This document shows positions 41,005 to 52,679 of a stretch of DNA of 64,000 nucleotides, piece after piece. The stretch spans positions 124,001 to 188,000 of the forward strand of contig NZ_JADNOP010000003.1 of NCBI RefSeq assembly GCF_015557635.1, given 5' to 3'. The stretch comes from Fusicatenibacter saccharivorans (lineage in GTDB: Bacteria > Bacillota > Clostridia > Lachnospirales > Lachnospiraceae). Under the pieces are notes generated by a model. It ran no database searches, had not been told where the DNA came from, and saw nothing but the letters and a program-made list of their open reading frames with translations. Position 1 is the first letter of the stretch. Every line of letters begins with the position of its first letter. A program made the translations under genes and the position numbers.

Positions 41005-42401
41005 TGAACTATAAAAACAGGGAACAGTACAAACATCTGATGCGTGTCCTGGCGGTCGCGGCGATTGTGCTTCTGGAATGCGCTGTTTTTTCTGTGTTCT
41101 GGGACAGATACTATGCGAGCCACCTGTGGCTGGAGCCGTTCTGGGATAAGGGAAATCAGATTATCGTCGTGATCTACGGCATTTTTCTTCTGGTTTTCAT
41201 GTACATTTACGGCGGCATGAAGATCGGCTACATGAAGGGAAGCAGCATCATCTATTCCCAGATGATGACGGCATTCTGTGCCAATGCGCTGATGTATCTG
41301 CAGATTATCCTGCTGTGGCGTCACCTGCCGTACATTCTGCCGATGGTCGGCATGACACTCGTGGACTTTGCGCTGGCAGGCATTGTATCCTGGCTTTTTG
41401 AGAAGACGTTTGCGCGTCTCTTTCCGCCAAGAGAGGTGCTTCTGATTTACGGTGAATACCCGATGGAAAGCCTGGAGCTGAAGATGAACCAGCGGCCGGA
41501 CAAGTATATTGTAGCACATAAGGTGAGCGTGGAAGTGGGAGAGAAAGAGCTCTGCCGCCAGATTGACGCATACGGTCAGGAGGGCGTGATCCTGGGCGAT
41601 CTTCATTCGGAGCTGCGCAACCGTCTGCTGAAATATTGCTATGCGAAAGAAATCCGTGTCTATCTGACGCCGAAGCTGTCGGATATTATGGTACGGAAAG
41701 CGGAAGCGCTCCATATTTTCGATACACCGCTTCTGCTCGCGCGAAACAGTGGTCTTTCGTTTGATCAGAGATTCTGCAAGCGCCTGCTGGATCTGCTCGT
41801 ATCGACGATTCTTCTTGTGATCACGTCGCCGATTATGCTGATCGCAGCGCTCTGCATCAAGCTGTATGACCATGGCCCGGTGTTCTTTAAACAGAAACGT
41901 CTCACGATCGGCGGAAAAGAATTCTATGTCTACAAATTCCGAAGCATGATCGTGGATGCCGAAAAAGACGGCGTAGCCCGTCTGGCAACGAAGAACGACA
42001 GCCGCATTACGCCGGTCGGAAAGGTGATCCGCGCGACGAGAATTGATGAGTTGCCGCAGCTTCTGAACATTTTCAAGGGCGATATGAGCGTCGTCGGACC
42101 GCGCCCGGAGCGGCCGGAGATTGCAAAGGAATATGAGGAATCGATTCCGGAGTTTGCTTACCGTCTGAAAGTAAAGGCAGGCCTTACCGGCTACGCCCAG
42201 ATTTACGGAAAGTACAACACGACCGCATACGACAAGTTGAAGCTGGATCTGATGTACATAGAGAGCTATTCGATTTTAGAGGATCTGAAGCTGATTCTTG
42301 CAACCTTTAAGATTGTCTTCACAAAGGAGAGCACAGAAGGGCTCGAGGAAGGACAGACGATCAGCCTGAACGCAAAGGAAGAGGAGAAAAAAGATGTTTA
42401 A
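41004..42401 (+). CDS. Undecaprenyl-phosphate sugar phosphotransferase
   Basis: This 465-residue enzyme starts a lipid-linked polymer by moving a sugar phosphate to undecaprenyl phosphate. It has about four or five N-terminal membrane segments, a Rossmann-like CoA-binding-fold domain, one more membrane segment ([19 protein letters not shown]), and the catalytic domain with [19 protein letters not shown] and [25 protein letters not shown]. It belongs to the WbaP/WcaJ type (polyisoprenyl-phosphate hexose-1-phosphate transferases). ATG 41004 is used; a TTG one codon earlier is also possible. Confidence 0.9.
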
Positions 42402-43269
42402 TACCGAGGACGAAATTCTGCGCCGGCTGCAGGAAAAAAATCTGGAAATGGCCGTTATGTTTTACCACTGGTGCCAGAGAAACCATCTGACCTGTTATCT
42501 CTGCGGCGGCGGCTGTATCGGTGCAATCCGCCACGGCGGCTTTATTCCGTGGGACGATGATCTCGACTTTTTCATGCCGCGGAAAGATTACGAGAAGTTC
42601 CTGAAAATCTGGGATACGCAGGAGGAGAGTAAAATCTACAAGCTCGAGTACCCGAAAGAGGGCTTCTGCAATGCGCACACGTTTGCGAACATCCGCGACA
42701 GCCGCACCACGCAGGTGAAAAAGGAGCAGGTCGATATGGATCTCTGCCACGGCGTTGCGCTTGATATTCTCCCGATCGAGGGCTATGCACCGGGAAAACT
42801 TGCGCGGAAATGGCAGGTGATCGAGGGAAAGATTTTCCAGCTCTTCTGCACGCAGGTTATTCCGACCAAAGAACGCCACGGCGCGTTTATGCATTACCTG
42901 GGAACGATTCTGCTGGCGCTGGCTCCGACGCAGAAGATGCGGTACCGGATCTGGAAGCAGGCAGAGAACTATATTACAAAATTTGATATCGACAGCCCAC
43001 GGGTGGACGGCATCACCGAGATGTGCGCACCGCAGGCGATTCTCCGGAAATATCCGAAAAAGATTTTTGCATCGGCGATTGAGGTTCCGTTCGAGAACGA
43101 GCGCCTGCCGATTCCGGTCGGATATGACACATATCTGCGCATGGCGTTCGGCGATTATATGAAACTGCCGCCGAAAGAACAGCAGAAAGGCCACCACGAT
43201 GCGGCGTTTCTGGATCTCGATCATCCGTATGAGCAGTATAAGGGGATACACTACTGCTGTAAGAAATAA
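42394..43269 (+). CDS. LicD-family phosphotransferase
   Basis: This 291-residue protein has the LicD core CGGGCIGAIRHGGFIPWDDD, followed by LDFFMPRKDYEKF and a downstream DLCHGVALDILPIEGY. LicD enzymes transfer phosphocholine or related groups (ribitol phosphate in the fukutin relatives) to glycans. In this region two proteins carry repeats that in pneumococcus bind phosphocholine, which fits a choline role; ribitol phosphate is an alternative given the TarIJ genes nearby. It overlaps the upstream gene by 8 bp. Confidence 0.88.
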   Translation: MFNTEDEILRRLQEKNLEMAVMFYHWCQRNHLTCYLCGGGCIGAIRHGGFIPWDDDLDFFMPRKDYEKFLKIWDTQEESKIYKLEYPKEGFCNAHTFANIRDSRTTQVKKEQVDMDLCHGVALDILPIEGYAPGKLARKWQVIEGKIFQLFCTQVIPTKERHGAFMHYLGTILLALAPTQKMRYRIWKQAENYITKFDIDSPRVDGITEMCAPQAILRKYPKKIFASAIEVPFENERLPIPVGYDTYLRMAFGDYMKLPPKEQQKGHHDAAFLDLDHPYEQYKGIHYCCKK

Positions 43270-44325: not shown

Positions 44326-46572
44326 CTAGCTTTCTTTTTCGGAAAGCAGAACACCGTTTTTATCAAACACATACGTTGTTCCGTCAATTTTTTTCGTCCC
44401 GGTGACGCATCCGCCCCAGCTCTGGAAATAATATGTTTTTCCATCAATTTCTGCCCAGCCGGTCTGCATGGAAGCATCATCGTTGAAGTAATACCAGTTG
44501 TTTTTATAATAGAACCACTGCGATTTTCTCGCACCGCCCCAGCTGTAGGTAAAGTACCAGACACCGTCCCGGATCACCCATTGGTTTGCCGGCATGACGC
44601 CGTTTTCATCAACAAAATAAAGATTGTTATCATACGTAAAGGCTTCATCCGTTTTCCGTGTACAGTCCTCATTAATATAATAGTATTTATTCTGAAGCAG
44701 CAGCCAGCCTTCGTGTGCGGCACCGCCCCAGCTTCTGAGATAATAATAGTTTCCATCCCATTTCAGCCACTGGTTCTGATACATTTTTCCGCTCTTATTT
44801 ACAAAGTAGAGATTGTTGTCATACAGGAAACTTTCGTTCTGCTTCAGGGAACCGTCCGCATTCATAAAATACCAGGCGCCATCGATCTGATACCAGCCAT
44901 TGGTTACGCAGGAATATTTCTGTACATAATACCAGGCACCGTCATGGTACAGCCAGGTGCTGCCGGAAATACCGCCCCAGGAAAGAAATTTGACGCGGTA
45001 ACCGTTTAAGGTAAGTGTCGTATTGCGTGCGGCACCTCCCCATGTGTAAAAATAGTACATCGTTTTGGTCTCCGGATCAGCGTGCCATCCGGACGAATAC
45101 ATAATACCGGTATCCTTGGCGAGATAGTACCAGTTGTTGCTGATAAACTGCCATCCGGTCTGCATCTCACCGCTGCCGGAAAAATAATAGTAATCTCCAT
45201 CAAGCAGAAGCCAGCCTGTTGCCATAACGCCGTCCGCGCCGAGGTAATACGTTTTGTGGTCGAGGGTGAGCCAGCCGGTATACGGTGTTTCATCATCGTT
45301 GTAGTAATACCATTTTCCATCCCGTTTTACCCAGCCGATGACGTGGCGTTCGTTTGTGATCACGCCGTTTTCATCGGAGGTATATTCGATGCCCGTTTCT
45401 GTGTCGCGCCAGGAAGTGGAGCATACGAGAAGATGGCTGCTGTCTGCATAATATTTCTGTCCGCCGCGGGTGAAAAATCCGCTGTACGGGATGCCGTCAT
45501 GATAAGCAACGAGCTTGGAAGAACGGCCGCGGTAAATTTCATAGGTATCATCCACGTTGGAAGTGACCGCGGAACCGGAAAAGTCAGCAATGACTGCCGG
45601 AAGATCGCCGGAATATTCTGTCGTGGAAAATACGCGCAGCCCCAGAGAGGTCAGGGTCTCGACGGTATCGTTATCCATAATACGGAAGTCACCGGTCTGG
45701 ATAAAATATTCCGGGTTGACGGCAGCAAGATAGTCTGCATCGACAGCATTCGGATATCCGTGATGATTGGAAGTCATCAGATCAATGCTGTACAGCCCGT
45801 AGTTCGAAACAATCCGGCTGGCATCGCCCTCGACGTCGTCGATATCGCTCGTCAGAAAAGCGCGGTGGTCGTTTGCGGAGGCAATTACACCAAGACAGAA
45901 CTGGTTGGCGTCCTCTTTTGGACTTGTGAGATAATCTTCCTCGTAGTTGACAATCTGGATCTGGAAATTTCCAAAAGCAAAATCAGGAGATCCTTCTTCT
46001 GCGGAGGCGGCACCGGGATTCAGATGCTGGATCAGGGTCACACCTTCAGTCTCTTCTACAGCAGTAAGAAGCTGGTCGTAGACATAAAGATTGTCCCAGA
46101 GACGCGCAGTATTATAGATATAACTGTCATCATACGGGAGCAGATAAACCCGGTCGGGGGAATACAGCCGCACGATGGTATCGCCGGTTCCAATATGGTC
46201 GCTGTGCGGATGTGTTGCAACATAAAACTGCAGATTATCGGAGGTGACACCGAGGGAGTCCAGGTAGGAGAGTACCTCATCGTCGTAGCCGGTCGACGTT
46301 GTGATGCCGCTGCGCAGCGGATAACGCGGATCAGATCCGTCAGGGTAATCCCAGTCCTCGCCGGAGTCTACCATGCCGAAAATTTTCTGGCCATTATCGT
46401 CTACACTTTCCAGAACGATGGCATTGGAGCCGCTGCCGAGTGTCAGAATGTGAATTTTTGCTGTAGTATCAGCCGCATGTGTGTTTTCCGGGGTGAGAAA
46501 AAGAAAAGCAGCGGCAAGGGATGCCGCGCCGATGGAAAACACGGATCTGCGGGTATGCCGGGAAAAAGGCAT
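44326..46572 (-). CDS. Secreted MBL-fold protein with cell-wall-binding repeats
   Basis: This 748-residue exported protein begins with a signal peptide (RRSVFSIGAASLAAAFLFL...HA). Residues about 40-330 form a metallo-beta-lactamase domain of the ComEC-like type, with HPHSDHIG (metal site), a SDIDD stretch and SNHHG. The remaining roughly 400 residues are about 15 aromatic cell-wall-binding repeats of the GWxxxDGxWYYF type, including near-duplicate blocks with YDNNLYFV and SWGGA. ATG 46572 has AAAGGAG on the minus strand; the upstream ATG at 46602 has none. A strong promoter precedes it. The substrate is unknown; phosphodiesters such as nucleic acid or phosphocholine esters are plausible. Confidence 0.85.
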   Translation of the reverse strand: MPFSRHTRRSVFSIGAASLAAAFLFLTPENTHAADTTAKIHILTLGSGSNAIVLESVDDNGQKIFGMVDSGEDWDYPDGSDPRYPLRSGITTSTGYDDEVLSYLDSLGVTSDNLQFYVATHPHSDHIGTGDTIVRLYSPDRVYLLPYDDSYIYNTARLWDNLYVYDQLLTAVEETEGVTLIQHLNPGAASAEEGSPDFAFGNFQIQIVNYEEDYLTSPKEDANQFCLGVIASANDHRAFLTSDIDDVEGDASRIVSNYGLYSIDLMTSNHHGYPNAVDADYLAAVNPEYFIQTGDFRIMDNDTVETLTSLGLRVFSTTEYSGDLPAVIADFSGSAVTSNVDDTYEIYRGRSSKLVAYHDGIPYSGFFTRGGQKYYADSSHLLVCSTSWRDTETGIEYTSDENGVITNERHVIGWVKRDGKWYYYNDDETPYTGWLTLDHKTYYLGADGVMATGWLLLDGDYYYFSGSGEMQTGWQFISNNWYYLAKDTGIMYSSGWHADPETKTMYYFYTWGGAARNTTLTLNGYRVKFLSWGGISGSTWLYHDGAWYYVQKYSCVTNGWYQIDGAWYFMNADGSLKQNESFLYDNNLYFVNKSGKMYQNQWLKWDGNYYYLRSWGGAAHEGWLLLQNKYYYINEDCTRKTDEAFTYDNNLYFVDENGVMPANQWVIRDGVWYFTYSWGGARKSQWFYYKNNWYYFNDDASMQTGWAEIDGKTYYFQSWGGCVTGTKKIDGTTYVFDKNGVLLSEKES

Positions 46573-46652
46573 ATCAATGGCTCCTTTCGTAACATATATC
46601 ATTAAAACAAAAAGTAAAACAGCCGGGTGGAAAATAAGCGCTCAACATCACA

Positions 46653-46771: not shown

Positions 46772-48688
46772 ATGATTACCTTATTAAAAATGCCGGCACT
46801 GTTTCTGGGAATGCTCGCAGTGTTCTGCTGCCTGGGTTCTTTTTTTATCAGAGAAAACAGGTATGAGAGCGGACATCTGGGTGAAACTGTGCTGTTTGGC
46901 TTTATTGCATATTACTTCTTATTTGAACTGATTTCTGTGCCGATGATGGTGCTCGGTGCAAAGCTGCATCTGCTCGCATGGGTATGGGCTGCTGTTGTGG
47001 CTGTCCTTGTAATTGCTTCCATCTGTCTTCATCTGGGAATGTGGAGAGAGTGGGGAAAAAGAAGCGGCGGTTTCTGGAGAGGAAAGACGGCGGCTTTTTA
47101 TGTGATGCTGGTGCTGATTGGAATCCAGCTGTATTTTGTTGCTGCACTGCAGGAAAACGGCAGTGCGGATGCAGCGTATTATGTGGGAAGTGTGACAACG
47201 AACCTTGCGACAGATTCCATCAGCAGCTTTGACCCATATACAGGAAAAGCACTGGATTTTTTTAACATCCGTTATGTGTTCAGCATGTATCCGGCAGCAA
47301 ATGCAGTACTGTGCCGTTTAACGGGCCTTCATCCGCTCGTAGTGACGAAGGTGATTCTCTGTATGATGACGGTAGTTTTAAGTTATCTCGTCTATGCACA
47401 GATCGGAAAGGCGCTGTTAAAAGAAAAACAGATGGTATGGGTGCTCCTGTGCTTTATTAGTGTTGTGAATCTGAATTTTCATACGATCTTTTCGAATGCG
47501 TCGTTCCTGCTGACGAGGGGATACGAGGGAAAGGCCGTATTGTGCAATATCATCCTCCCGTTTCTGTTTTATCTTGGCCTGCGCATGTATCAGGAGAAAA
47601 ACGGAAAGAGAGTCTGGCTGCTGTTTTTCATGACAGGCGTCGCTGCGATTGATCTTACGATGTCATCCATGATGACCGTACCGGTGGCCATGAGTGCTGT
47701 GATTCTGCCGAATCTTGTGCGGAAAAAACGCTGGGGACAGAGCGGGCTCTATCTGCTTGCTGTGCTGCCGTGTGTGCTGGTGCTTGGGGTCTATCTCCTT
47801 GGTGTGCGCGGTATCCTGCAGATTCCGGTTGTGCGGTAGAAAGGAGAAAATGTGGGCGGAATAAATCTGAATGAGAGCGGCCTCGATTTTGTGAGACAGG
47901 TCTTTGTGACGTTTGGAGGAAACACAACCGTACTGACGCTGTTTCTGCTGTCGGTGCTGTATCTCGCTTTAAAAGGAAAAAAGGAAGAGCGGTATGTGTT
48001 CGTAACAACCGCTGTTTTTCTGGCCTTTACGGTATACAATCCATTTGCGGTGAAATATATCCTGGGAAAACTTGGAATGGTCAATGTCTATTACCGGTTT
48101 TTCTGGATTCTGCCGATGGTACTGACCATCGGATATGCCTGCACGAAAGTTGTGGGCGGGCAGAAAAAAGGCTGGAGACGGTATCTGACCGCGGCTGCGC
48201 TGGCAGCGGTCATCTGTTTTGGCGGAAATTCCGTACTGGCTGGCGGACTGCCGAAGCTGCCGGATAACCAGTACAAGATGCCAGATGATCTTCTGGCCGT
48301 CTGTACGGTGCTGCACGAAGAAGCGGGAGAGGGAACCGTAAGAGTTGTCTTTGAACCGGATTTCAACCTGATCGTGCGGCAGTATGATGCTTCGTTTGAA
48401 CTGGTTCTGGACCGCGATATGGTTCTGACCTATCAGGGCTCCAATACGGTATCAACTGATGCACTGACCGAGCAGGAAATTGAAGACGAAACAAAGATCC
48501 TTCAGATTATCACACAGATGGATCTGTCGCTGGATCAGAAAGAATTTTACAGAAGTCTTAGGGAAATGAATGCAGAGTATATTGTACTTTCGAGCAGTTC
48601 AGCGGCAGTATCCTATGTGGAAACAGCGGGGTGCATCCCGGTAAGAGAAGTAGAAGGGCATATCATTTTCCGCGTGGAAGAAAAGTAA
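46772..48688 (+). pseudogene. Large DUF6077-like membrane protein split by an in-frame TAG
   Basis: One reading frame runs from ATG 46772 to 48688 and is broken only by TAG at 47837-47839. The first part (355 residues) has about nine membrane segments with NIRYVFSMYPAANAV and RGYEGKAVLCN motifs. The second (from GTG 47852) has about three more, then an extracellular domain with GSNTVSTDALTEQE. Together they match the layout of large GT-C-like membrane proteins annotated DUF6077. The CAG-to-TAG change in CGG TAG AAA would explain it. AAAGGAG just after the stop could allow restart at GTG 47852, giving a two-piece protein, so function may survive. Confidence 0.65.
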
Positions 48689-48704
48689 AAAGGAGGACTT
48701 GTTT

Positions 48705-49055
48705 TTGAATAAGGCAAAAGATTATATTCAGCTGCACCTGAATATCCTGCTGTTTTCTCTGACGAGTGTGTTCTCGAAAGCAGCATCGGTTCAGCTGAAC
48801 CGGGGAGGAATCAAAAATCCTCTATTATATGTATTTTTATTTCTGATGGTTGCAAACTGTGGCATTTACGCTATTGCATGGCAGAAGGTAATCAAAAAAT
48901 TCTCTTTGTCAACCGCATATGCAAACCGCAGCGTCTATCTGATCTGGTCCCAGATCTGGGCCGTGATCATTTTCCATGAAAATCTGACGGTAAAAAATAT
49001 CATCGGCCTTCTGATTGTGCTGGTGGGAGTTATGGTGGTGCAGCGATATGAATAA
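48705..49055 (+). CDS. SMR/EamA-like small membrane protein, flippase half 1
   Basis: This 116-residue protein has four predicted membrane segments and the EamA/SMR pattern (YAIAWQKVIKKFSLSTAYANRSVYLIWSQIWAVIIFHE, written here only as key motifs STAYANRS and IWSQIWAVI). It overlaps the next gene, also SMR-like, by 8 bp. Such pairs (for example ArnE/ArnF) move undecaprenyl-phosphate-linked sugars across the membrane, which fits the polymer region. TTG 48705 lies 8 bp after AGGAGG; an earlier TTG at 48699 is too close. Confidence 0.7.
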   Translation: MNKAKDYIQLHLNILLFSLTSVFSKAASVQLNRGGIKNPLLYVFLFLMVANCGIYAIAWQKVIKKFSLSTAYANRSVYLIWSQIWAVIIFHENLTVKNIIGLLIVLVGVMVVQRYE

Positions 49056-49386
49056 ATATATGATTTTAATGCTGATCTGTACAATGTTTTCAGCAGTATC
49101 ACAGATTCTGCTGAAACAAAGCGCCAACGAGGAGCATGCATCTGCACTTCGCGAGTACTTGAACTGGCGCGTCATTACAGCGTATGTGATTTTCGGCAGT
49201 GTACTTCTTTTAAATACCTATGCCTACACACAGGTAGATTTGAAATACGGTCCGGTGCTGGATACCTTTACGTACGTCTTTGTCCTGCTGCTTTCCTTTG
49301 GCGTTTTGAAAGAAAAGGTATCAAAAGGAAAGCTGATTGGGAATCTGATTATTATCCTGGGAGTACTGGTGTATACATTGCCGTAA
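49048..49386 (+). CDS. SMR/EamA-like small membrane protein, flippase half 2
   Basis: This 112-residue four-segment protein contains FSAVSQILLKQSA near the N-terminus and LNTYAYTQVDLKYGPVLDT. It starts within the last codons of its partner and differs strongly from it in sequence, as expected of an obligate heterodimer. The probable role is a lipid-linked sugar flippase or a sugar-lipid carrier for the neighbouring glycosyltransferase-like membrane protein. Confidence 0.7.
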   Translation: MNKYMILMLICTMFSAVSQILLKQSANEEHASALREYLNWRVITAYVIFGSVLLLNTYAYTQVDLKYGPVLDTFTYVFVLLLSFGVLKEKVSKGKLIGNLIIILGVLVYTLP

Positions 49387-50855: not shown

Positions 50856-52679
50856 TTAGACTGTGGAATCCAAATCGTTTTCTGTAAAAGAAGAAGCGGA
50901 GGAAATGTCACTTACCGAAGTGGAGTCGGGTGTTTCCTCTTCCAATTCAGGATTTGTATCGCAAGGACCCTCGATGAGATGGTAATCCGACTCGGAAAAA
51001 TGATACCATTTCCCATCCTCAAGCTTTTGCCAGCCGGAAACCGCGTGGCCGTCCTTATCAATAAAATAAGACTGCTTACCGTCAGCCCAGAGCTGATGTG
51101 GATTGTAAGTTACCCATTCGTTATTGGCAAATCGATCTTCTTCCTTAATATAAAATTTCTGATATTCGCCATCGCCGACCCAGACGGGGGTAAGATCAGC
51201 ATCAAGTTCATCGAAGAATCGGGAGCCCATAGAGAGCTGGCGATTCAGTTCATCGAAGCCAAGTTCTTCGGCAAGTGTAGGCTTGTCTGAAAAAAGATTC
51301 GTACCAAGTCCAAGACGGTCACCGTCAATGACAGCTCCAAGGCTTGCGAGAGTAGTTGGGAACATATCCATCGTGGTGAAAATCCGATTTTTTTCATGAA
51401 CCGGAAGAATGGGTGAATTTAAAATAGCGTTATAAGTAGAACGTTGATAATCTTCATCGATGTTTTCACAAAAATCAGAGTCCATGGTCAGATGATCACC
51501 GGAAAGAATTATAGTCGTGTTTTCATAAAAAGGCTGTTCCTTGATCCAGTCTATAAACTCACTGACACGGGAACTGGAGCAGTCAATCACCATACCGTAG
51601 TGGTCATCTCCGTACTGCTTTTCATCACACTCGTCACATTTGTAGCCGTCCTCGAAGTGGGTGGCAACAGTCAGCATACTGAAGTTGAACGGTTCGTCAT
51701 TCTTGGAAATCTCCGTCAGTTTATCTTTTGCATACTCAAACAGTTTGGCATCTTCATAGCCCCACCACTGGTAGTAGCCTTCCGGGATCAGTCCCTCGCT
51801 GATCGCCCAGTAGTAATCGTCAATTTCATAATCACCGTGCGAAGTGAAGTAATTCTTCCGTCCGCCGAATGCGGCATCGGAACCCATCATAAAGTACTGT
51901 TTGTAGCCGGCTTCATTGAGAACGTCGCCAAGTGTTGAAAGCTGCGGAAAAAAGCTGTCCTGATAAGCCATCTCATTGCCTTGAATCGAAAGCTTCAGCG
52001 GAAGACCGGAAGTCTGTGCAAAGAGACCGCCCATGGTCCAGGTGGTTCCGGTTGTCGGATAAGCGCCGCCCAGCTTGTCGGAGTTGGAAAAATTGATATT
52101 GTCCAGGGCAAGATTAGTCAGGGCGGGAATAAAATTGTGGTCGTAAGCACCGCCGTCTTTTTTATCAGAATAGGTGCTTTCCATTGATTCCAGATAAATA
52201 TAGATCAGATTCCGTTTCTTTTCCGGGAATGTAATCGTTGTCTGGGACGGATTGACGTAATTATCTTCGATCAAAGTGCTGTAGCTGTTCTGAATGTGCA
52301 GGTAAGTATCGATATCCAGCGTCGTCCAGACATTATAAAGAGAATAGGAAGAAAGAGCGATTCCCAGGGCAATGCAGATGCAACCGAGAATGATTTCCAC
52401 TTTCTTCCGATGGCGCAGGATAATAAAAAGCGCGATCAGAATAGCAAGAACGGCAAAAGAGATCATGCCGCAGGACCAGACGTAACTCCAGAGCACATCC
52501 TTGCTGGTACCCTCAAGGGGTGCCTTTAAGTGATAAACAAGTTCTTCCATATCAAGATGCGCCCAGGTCGCGAGCATCCAGCGGGAAGACGTAAAAAGAA
52601 GGATCCCAAGGAATCCTAACAGAACGGAAAGAATGGAAAAAAGTATCTTTCCAACATGCTGTACTTTTTTGCGAGACAC
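50856..52679 (-). CDS. LTA synthase-like phosphotransferase with cell-wall-binding repeat
   Basis: This 607-residue protein has about four N-terminal membrane segments and a large extracellular sulfatase/alkaline-phosphatase-fold domain of the LTA synthase family. Key stretches are YLESMESTYSDKKDGGAYDHNFIP (here only YLESMESTYS), the nucleophile Thr in the YPTTGTTWTMGG region, and ILSGDHLTMD. After this domain come two aromatic cell-wall-binding repeats (QSYFIDKDGHAVSGW, GKWYHFSESD) and an acidic Ser-rich tail. It probably moves phosphoglycerol or another head group from a lipid to a wall polymer. GTG 52679 has GGAGG 9 bp upstream. Confidence 0.83.
   Translation of the reverse strand: MSRKKVQHVGKILFSILSVLLGFLGILLFTSSRWMLATWAHLDMEELVYHLKAPLEGTSKDVLWSYVWSCGMISFAVLAILIALFIILRHRKKVEIILGCICIALGIALSSYSLYNVWTTLDIDTYLHIQNSYSTLIEDNYVNPSQTTITFPEKKRNLIYIYLESMESTYSDKKDGGAYDHNFIPALTNLALDNINFSNSDKLGGAYPTTGTTWTMGGLFAQTSGLPLKLSIQGNEMAYQDSFFPQLSTLGDVLNEAGYKQYFMMGSDAAFGGRKNYFTSHGDYEIDDYYWAISEGLIPEGYYQWWGYEDAKLFEYAKDKLTEISKNDEPFNFSMLTVATHFEDGYKCDECDEKQYGDDHYGMVIDCSSSRVSEFIDWIKEQPFYENTTIILSGDHLTMDSDFCENIDEDYQRSTYNAILNSPILPVHEKNRIFTTMDMFPTTLASLGAVIDGDRLGLGTNLFSDKPTLAEELGFDELNRQLSMGSRFFDELDADLTPVWVGDGEYQKFYIKEEDRFANNEWVTYNPHQLWADGKQSYFIDKDGHAVSGWQKLEDGKWYHFSESDYHLIEGPCDTNPELEEETPDSTSVSDISSASSFTENDLDSTV

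What the first reader, a model, noticed from the sequence alone, without database searches (positions are those of the whole stretch)
46772..48688. Large membrane protein interrupted by a single in-frame TAG with a fresh ribosome binding site
The frame is open on both sides of TAG 47837-47839, and CAG to TAG would explain it. AAAGGAG follows at once, with GTG 47852 in the same frame. This could be recent inactivation, a true split into two subunits, or amber readthrough. The rest of the frame shows no decay.
Basis: seen in the sequence. Interest (0 to 1): 0.55.

Follow-up and report, generated by a model that had tools for sequence, protein, structure and literature searches.

The report
Conserved two-gene membrane protein pair
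What looked like one large membrane protein broken by a stop codon is an ordinary pair of neighbouring genes: most relatives examined encode the same two halves as separate genes, so nothing here needs to be broken or read through.

Summary
The sequence observation is right: TAG 47837-47839, AAAGGAG 47840-47846, GTG 47852 in the same frame, open on both sides. The reading as one interrupted protein is wrong. The upstream part is a nearly complete DUF6077 protein (PF19554, profile 2-352 of 354). In 5 of 6 other genomes of the genus the homologue exists, and all 5 are split at the same place, with other stop codons, other spacing and, in 3 of 5, another frame. Among 146 distinct loci, 134 have two ORFs, 6 one full-length ORF, 1 a shorter single ORF, and 5 no adjacent second half. 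The halves occur together in 139 of 397 genomes; one has only the first, none only the second. In three genomes the genes are apart, in two on different contigs, so neither readthrough nor fusion is needed. Probably a two-subunit membrane protein for surface-glycan assembly; that function is inferred. A modest excess of in-frame junctions and TAG stops is unexplained.

The parts
46772..47839 (+). Gene 1 (here H1): 355-aa DUF6077 membrane protein, about 9 hydrophobic segments; ends at TAG 47837-47839
   Evidence: Pfam PF19554, 334.5 bits, profile 2-352 of 354, residues 4-343; hydropathy count
47837..47839 (+). TAG, the normal stop of gene 1
   Evidence: five genus homologues stop in the same region with TGA or TAA
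47840..47846 (+). AAAGGAG, Shine-Dalgarno-like sequence, 5 bases before GTG 47852
   Evidence: Read; an SD-like motif precedes the chosen start of gene 2 in 116 of 134 split loci, by a script that prefers starts with such a motif
47852..48688 (+). Gene 2 (here H2): 278-aa protein, about 4 hydrophobic segments plus a C-terminal part without any; no Pfam family over its cut-off and no NCBIfam hit
   Evidence: homologues next to gene 1 in 134 of 146 distinct loci
44326..46602 (-). Context: metallo-beta-lactamase-like protein with choline-binding repeats, divergent neighbour of gene 1; relatives of this domain are fused to H2 in 11 of 134 split loci
   Evidence: Pfam (choline-binding over cut-off, Lactamase_B 21.1 bits, just under its cut-off of 22.7); profile search
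48699..49386 (+). Context: two small EamA-family proteins (48699-49055, 49015-49386) following gene 2
   Evidence: Pfam EamA over cut-off in both

Best explanation
This is a normal two-gene unit. Gene 1 (DUF6077) ends at TAG 47837-47839; ribosomes start gene 2 at GTG 47852 from the Shine-Dalgarno-like sequence that follows the stop, probably helped by ribosomes arriving from gene 1. SHOWN by sequence: two ORFs at a conserved split point; stops, spacing and frames that vary between homologues; near-perfect co-occurrence; genomes in which the two genes lie apart. INFERRED: the two products assemble in the membrane into one unit equivalent to the one-chain form of a separate clade, and that unit handles a sugar during surface-glycan assembly (possibly a GT-C-like lipid-linked-sugar glycosyltransferase; I put this last step at about 0.35). 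The confidence below is for the gene pair, not for that function.
For: H1 matches a Pfam family nearly end to end. 5 of 6 other genomes of the genus have the homologue, all 5 split; gene 2 is in the same frame in 2 of the 5 and in another in 3. In 4 of the 5 (L002-L005) gene 2 begins, by my reading, with TTG, TTG, ATG or ATG followed by Gly, like GTG-Gly in the window; in L006 I did not settle a start. 134 of 146 distinct loci are split: frames 62/38/34, stops TAA 47, TAG 46, TGA 41. In/out-of-frame needs 44 changes on the tree against a shuffled mean of 44.7, so frame is not inherited. H1 and H2 co-occur: 139 of 397 genomes both, 1 H1 only, 0 H2 only, 257 neither. In G133 and G058 H1 and H2 lie on different contigs, kilobases from the contig ends; in G070 three genes lie between. 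The H2 profile matches the C-terminal part of all 6 full-length one-ORF homologues at E 4.5e-47 or better. Glycan context: two GT2, sugar transferase, LicD, dTDP-sugar epimerase, ABC-2 transporter in the window, and GT2 genes near H1 in 3 of 3 loci where H2 is not adjacent and the contig goes on.
Against: In-frame junctions are commoner than in controls (62 of 134 vs 57 of 173, p 0.019; vs 37 of 146, p 0.0003) and so are TAG stops (46 of 134 vs 34 of 173, p 0.004; vs 32 of 146, p 0.024); a plain gene pair does not predict this. No contact of the products was shown. G133 also has a second, weak H1-like match (C65, E 2.0e-23) followed by a weak H2-like one (E 2.0e-4), perhaps a divergent joined form, so it is not a clean one-pair genome. 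The three genomes with separated genes are 61-84% complete. Function: PDB profile searches found nothing credible and structure models were poor (mean pLDDT 38 and 45).
Confidence: 0.95

Rival explanations
1. Recent inactivation: a sense codon (CAG in the reader's suggestion) turned into TAG in a formerly single gene.
For: One stop, in frame, no other decay; full-length one-ORF homologues exist.
Against: The one-ORF homologues form one separate group (support 99, one fused/split change on the tree); all 5 homologues found in the genus are split, 3 of them out of frame. The starred sets listed around the window row hold split rows and one H1-only row, no one-ORF row.
Confidence: 0.01
2. Amber readthrough makes a fused protein as well as the two separate ones, and this matters to the cell.
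For: Excess of in-frame junctions and of TAG among split loci. In-frame junctions are TAG in 25 of 62, others in 21 of 72.
Against: 72 of 134 split loci are out of frame and 88 of 134 use TAA or TGA; in three genomes the genes are apart; the stop is followed by a Shine-Dalgarno-like sequence and a start codon. The H2-to-next-gene control is itself in frame in 30 of 74. 27 of the 46 TAG junctions read TAGG, compatible with the stop doubling as part of the ribosome binding site.
Confidence: 0.03
3. Programmed frameshifting joins the two frames in the homologues that are out of frame.
For: The two halves correspond to one chain in another clade.
Against: All three frame relations occur, with chosen start positions from -13 to +242 bases relative to the end of the stop, no shared sequence at the junction by eye, and the genes can be far apart.
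Confidence: 0.01

Closest known systems
Pfam PF19554, DUF6077 (family of unknown function)
   Same: Gene 1 matches it nearly end to end (2-352 of 354, 334.5 bits against a cut-off of 27). The match ends 12 residues before the stop of the gene.
   Different: Gene 2 of the window has no Pfam family over its cut-off and no NCBIfam hit, although H2 accompanies H1 in 139 of 140 genomes.
Full-length one-ORF DUF6077 homologues (L038, L039, L040, L041, L042, L149)
   Same: One 611-650-aa ORF matching H1 and then H2.
   Different: No stop at this point; among the loci examined they form one group apart from the split loci. Five are of the window's family, one (L149) of another.
Closely spaced co-directional gene pairs encoding subunits of one complex (PMC10666635 and PMC6728339; titles and starts of abstracts seen in the listing, not read further)
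   Same: Short distance, start of gene 2 just after the stop of gene 1, partners that occur together.
   Different: Here the two proteins correspond to parts of one chain in other bacteria; coupling was not measured.
GT-C glycosyltransferases such as ArnT (recalled, from no call)
   Same: Many hydrophobic segments, C-terminal part without any, acidic residues D154, D156, D157 invariant in the 6 one-ORF homologues, glycan gene neighbourhood.
   Different: No sequence match to solved structures and no usable structure model; of the corresponding D-x-D-D the window protein keeps only D133.

Membership tests
DUF6077 (PF19554) | Score over the curated cut-off along the profile | tested here: met
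   334.5 bits, cut-off 27, positions 2-352 of 354
Conserved two-gene pair | Homologues split at the same point, with separate signals | tested here: met
   134 of 146 distinct loci; start and SD-like motif by simple script
Conserved two-gene pair | Partners occur together even when not adjacent | tested here: met
   139 both, 1 H1 only, 0 H2 only of 397; G133, G058, G070
Conserved two-gene pair | Products form one complex | not testable with these tools
   Inferred from the one-ORF homologues
Pseudogene by nonsense mutation | Close relatives keep one continuous frame | tested here: not met
   5 of 5 genus homologues split; strains of the same species not compared
Stop-codon readthrough gene | In-frame continuation conserved in homologues | tested here: not met
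   62 of 134 in frame; halves on different contigs in two genomes
GT-C glycosyltransferase | Sequence or fold match to a known GT-C enzyme | tested here: inconclusive
   No credible PDB hit; models with pLDDT 38 and 45, no fold search run on them
GT-C glycosyltransferase | Transfer of a sugar from a lipid carrier | not testable with these tools
   Only gene neighbourhood

The most novel reading that the evidence does not exclude
An obligate two-subunit membrane enzyme, perhaps a split GT-C-like glycosyltransferase, whose gene was split (or joined) once in the history of these loci; because both products end in the same complex, the stop between them is under relaxed selection, so in-frame junctions and the weak stop TAG are tolerated and some fused protein is made alongside. 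A metallo-beta-lactamase-like hydrolase may be a third part.
Probability: 0.1. Interest if true: 0.45.

Novelty: new member of a known kind. Interest (0 to 1): 0.17.

Why it matters
It removes a false lead (no pseudogene, no recoding needed). It also shows that DUF6077 has a constant partner that neither Pfam nor NCBIfam models in the window's protein, which gives annotators a second family and experimenters a defined pair to test. A protein that is one chain in one clade and two in the rest is a convenient case for studying how membrane proteins tolerate splitting.

Tried and rejected
Recent inactivation, readthrough and frameshifting were tested against homologues and rejected. The in-frame excess was tested for inheritance on the tree (not clumped) and for the TAGG overlap (in frame 16 of 27 TAGG and 46 of 107 other junctions; does not account for all of it). 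Weak Pfam hits of H2 (Cyt_bd_oxida_II 20.7 bits, DUF4131 12.9 bits) are under their cut-offs and were not believed, nor was an NCBIfam hit of H1 (13.2 bits, cut-off 207). The ClpS and fucosidase PDB hits (E 0.13-0.32) were taken as chance. Structure models of H1 and H2 were too poor for a fold search, so none was run. Literature: 'DUF6077' in no held paper; a search for split GT-C or gene fission listed two papers, not on the topic by title and abstract start; 15 papers hold 'Fusicatenibacter saccharivorans' and 'exopolysaccharide', 10 were listed. No paper was opened.

Weaknesses: the script mislabelled the one-ORF homologues as H1-only; one search corrected this. The 146 loci are not a random sample: most are the best-scoring matches (its listing was cut), and the 20 were picked for long open frames, which favours one-ORF forms. 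A match with a 616-aa open frame (G578) was not fetched. The tree is a quick one with 55 of 143 inner branches open. Start codons of gene 2 were chosen by a simple score. The controls use simple ORF calls and do not correct for relatedness; that includes the window, hence this pair itself. The H2 search scored at most 6 candidates a genome. PHROGs and PADLOC were not searched.

Full report
What is there. The frame from ATG 46772 to TAA 48688 holds one internal stop, TAG 47837-47839, followed by AAAGGAG 47840-47846 and GTG 47852 in the same frame.

What it is. The first ORF (355 aa) is a DUF6077 protein: PF19554, 334.5 bits, profile positions 2-352 of 354, residues 4-343. The family model thus ends close to the split. 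The second ORF (278 aa) has no Pfam family over its cut-off and no NCBIfam hit. I call the two halves H1 and H2.

Genus. The window's genome has one H1. Of 6 other genomes of the genus, 5 have a homologue and all 5 are split at the same place, with stops TGA, TGA, TGA, TGA, TAA against TAG in the window; H2 is in the same frame in 2 (L002, L006) and in another in 3 (L003, L004, L005). In L002-L005 gene 2 begins, by my reading, TTG, TTG, ATG, ATG, each followed by glycine as in the window and with a purine-rich sequence upstream. The sixth genome (G002) has neither half. L037 duplicates L003 and its record is titled Fusicatenibacter sp., so the window is probably from that genus. Strains of the window's own species were not compared.

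Family. PF19554 is found in 155 of 397 genomes of the family, 140 over the cut-off, and in 24 of 391 of the class, 15 over the cut-off, of which 13 are again of the window's family. I examined 154 loci over the cut-off, 146 distinct: 134 split, 6 full-length single ORFs of 611-650 aa (L038, L039, L040, L041, L042, L149), one shorter single ORF of 488 aa that matches both profiles (L045), and 5 without an adjacent H2 (L050 and L052 run into a contig end; L078, L095, L107 do not). Among the 134 split junctions the frame relation is 62 same, 38 and 34 other; stops are TAA 47, TAG 46, TGA 41. On a quick tree of 146 rows the 6 full-length forms are one side of a branch (support 99) and fused/split needs one change. 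The direction, one fission or one fusion, is not rooted. One locus outside the family (L150) is split by an in-frame TAA.

Partners. H1 (140 genomes after leaving out 15 weak matches, the same number as over the cut-off) and H2 (E 1e-10 or less) occur together in 139 of 397 genomes; G224 has only H1, none has only H2, 257 have neither. For the three loci without an adjacent H2 and not at a contig end, the genome has H2 elsewhere: in G070 with three genes between, in G133 and G058 on another contig, with both genes kilobases from the contig ends. These genomes are 61-84% complete, so a further copy could be missing, and G133 has a second weak H1-like match with a weak H2-like one after it; but the H1 examined in each has other genes after it. 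This is close to a natural test that the halves work from separate genes.

Mechanism. Two proteins from neighbouring genes; gene 2 starts just after the stop of gene 1 (shown by anatomy). That translation is coupled is inferred; published work on closely spaced gene pairs for subunits of complexes was seen only as titles and abstract starts. That the products form one complex is inferred from the one-ORF clade and the co-occurrence. A role in surface glycans is inferred from context: GT2 enzymes, Bac_transf, LicD, EamA pair, a sulfatase-family protein, dTDP-sugar epimerase and an ABC-2 transporter in the window. A GT-C-like function is a guess: PDB profile searches found nothing credible, and models had mean pLDDT 38 and 45.

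Against my reading. In-frame junctions (62 of 134) exceed the flanking gene pairs of the same loci (57 of 173, p 0.019; made up of 27 of 99 before H1 and 30 of 74 after H2) and gene pairs from longer stretches (37 of 146, p 0.0003); TAG stops (46 of 134) exceed 34 of 173 (p 0.004) and 32 of 146 (p 0.024). The state is not clumped on the tree (44 changes, shuffled mean 44.7), so simple inheritance does not explain it. TAG that doubles as part of the ribosome binding site (TAGG in 27 of 134) explains some of the TAG excess at most. Tolerated low-level readthrough is not excluded but is not needed.

Verdict. Residual interest lies in the constant partner of DUF6077 that Pfam and NCBIfam do not cover, and in its fusion to a metallo-beta-lactamase-like domain in 11 of 134 split loci, a state that needs 8 changes on the tree (300 shuffles: mean 10.7, least 8).

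Noticed in passing
window 44326-46602 (-), next to gene 1; L016, L026, L057, L069, L080, L083, L102, L124, L130, L132, L148: A metallo-beta-lactamase-like domain related to the window's divergent neighbour is fused to the C-terminus of H2 in 11 of 134 split loci (8 changes on the tree) and lies beside the pair in two (window, L062); it was not found in the 1.5-kb flanks of L002-L005. Suggests a functional link.
   Followed up: partly
134 split junctions, e.g. window 47837-47852: In-frame junctions and TAG stops are commoner than in two controls, and the in-frame state is not inherited on the tree; unexplained.
   Followed up: partly
L129:2191-3618: An H2 carries a histidine phosphatase domain (PF00300) at its C-terminus instead.
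   Followed up: no
L150, G687 (another family of the class): The two halves are separated by a single in-frame TAA with a GTG directly after it and, by eye, no clear Shine-Dalgarno motif; the search tool gave 615 aa as open frame, my six-frame reading gives 375 and 239 aa around the TAA.
   Followed up: partly
window 50856-52679 (-): Sulfatase-family protein (LTA-synthase-like, a recalled label) with a weak choline-binding repeat match under its cut-off, in the same glycan region as a LicD gene (42394-43269).
   Followed up: no
L045:996-2459: A 488-aa single ORF matches both H1 and H2 profiles, apparently a shortened joined form.
   Followed up: no
G133:C65:7452-8864 (not fetched): A weak H1-like match (E 2.0e-23) followed by a weak H2-like match (E 2.0e-4), both listed with a 553-aa open frame: perhaps a divergent joined form.
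   Followed up: no
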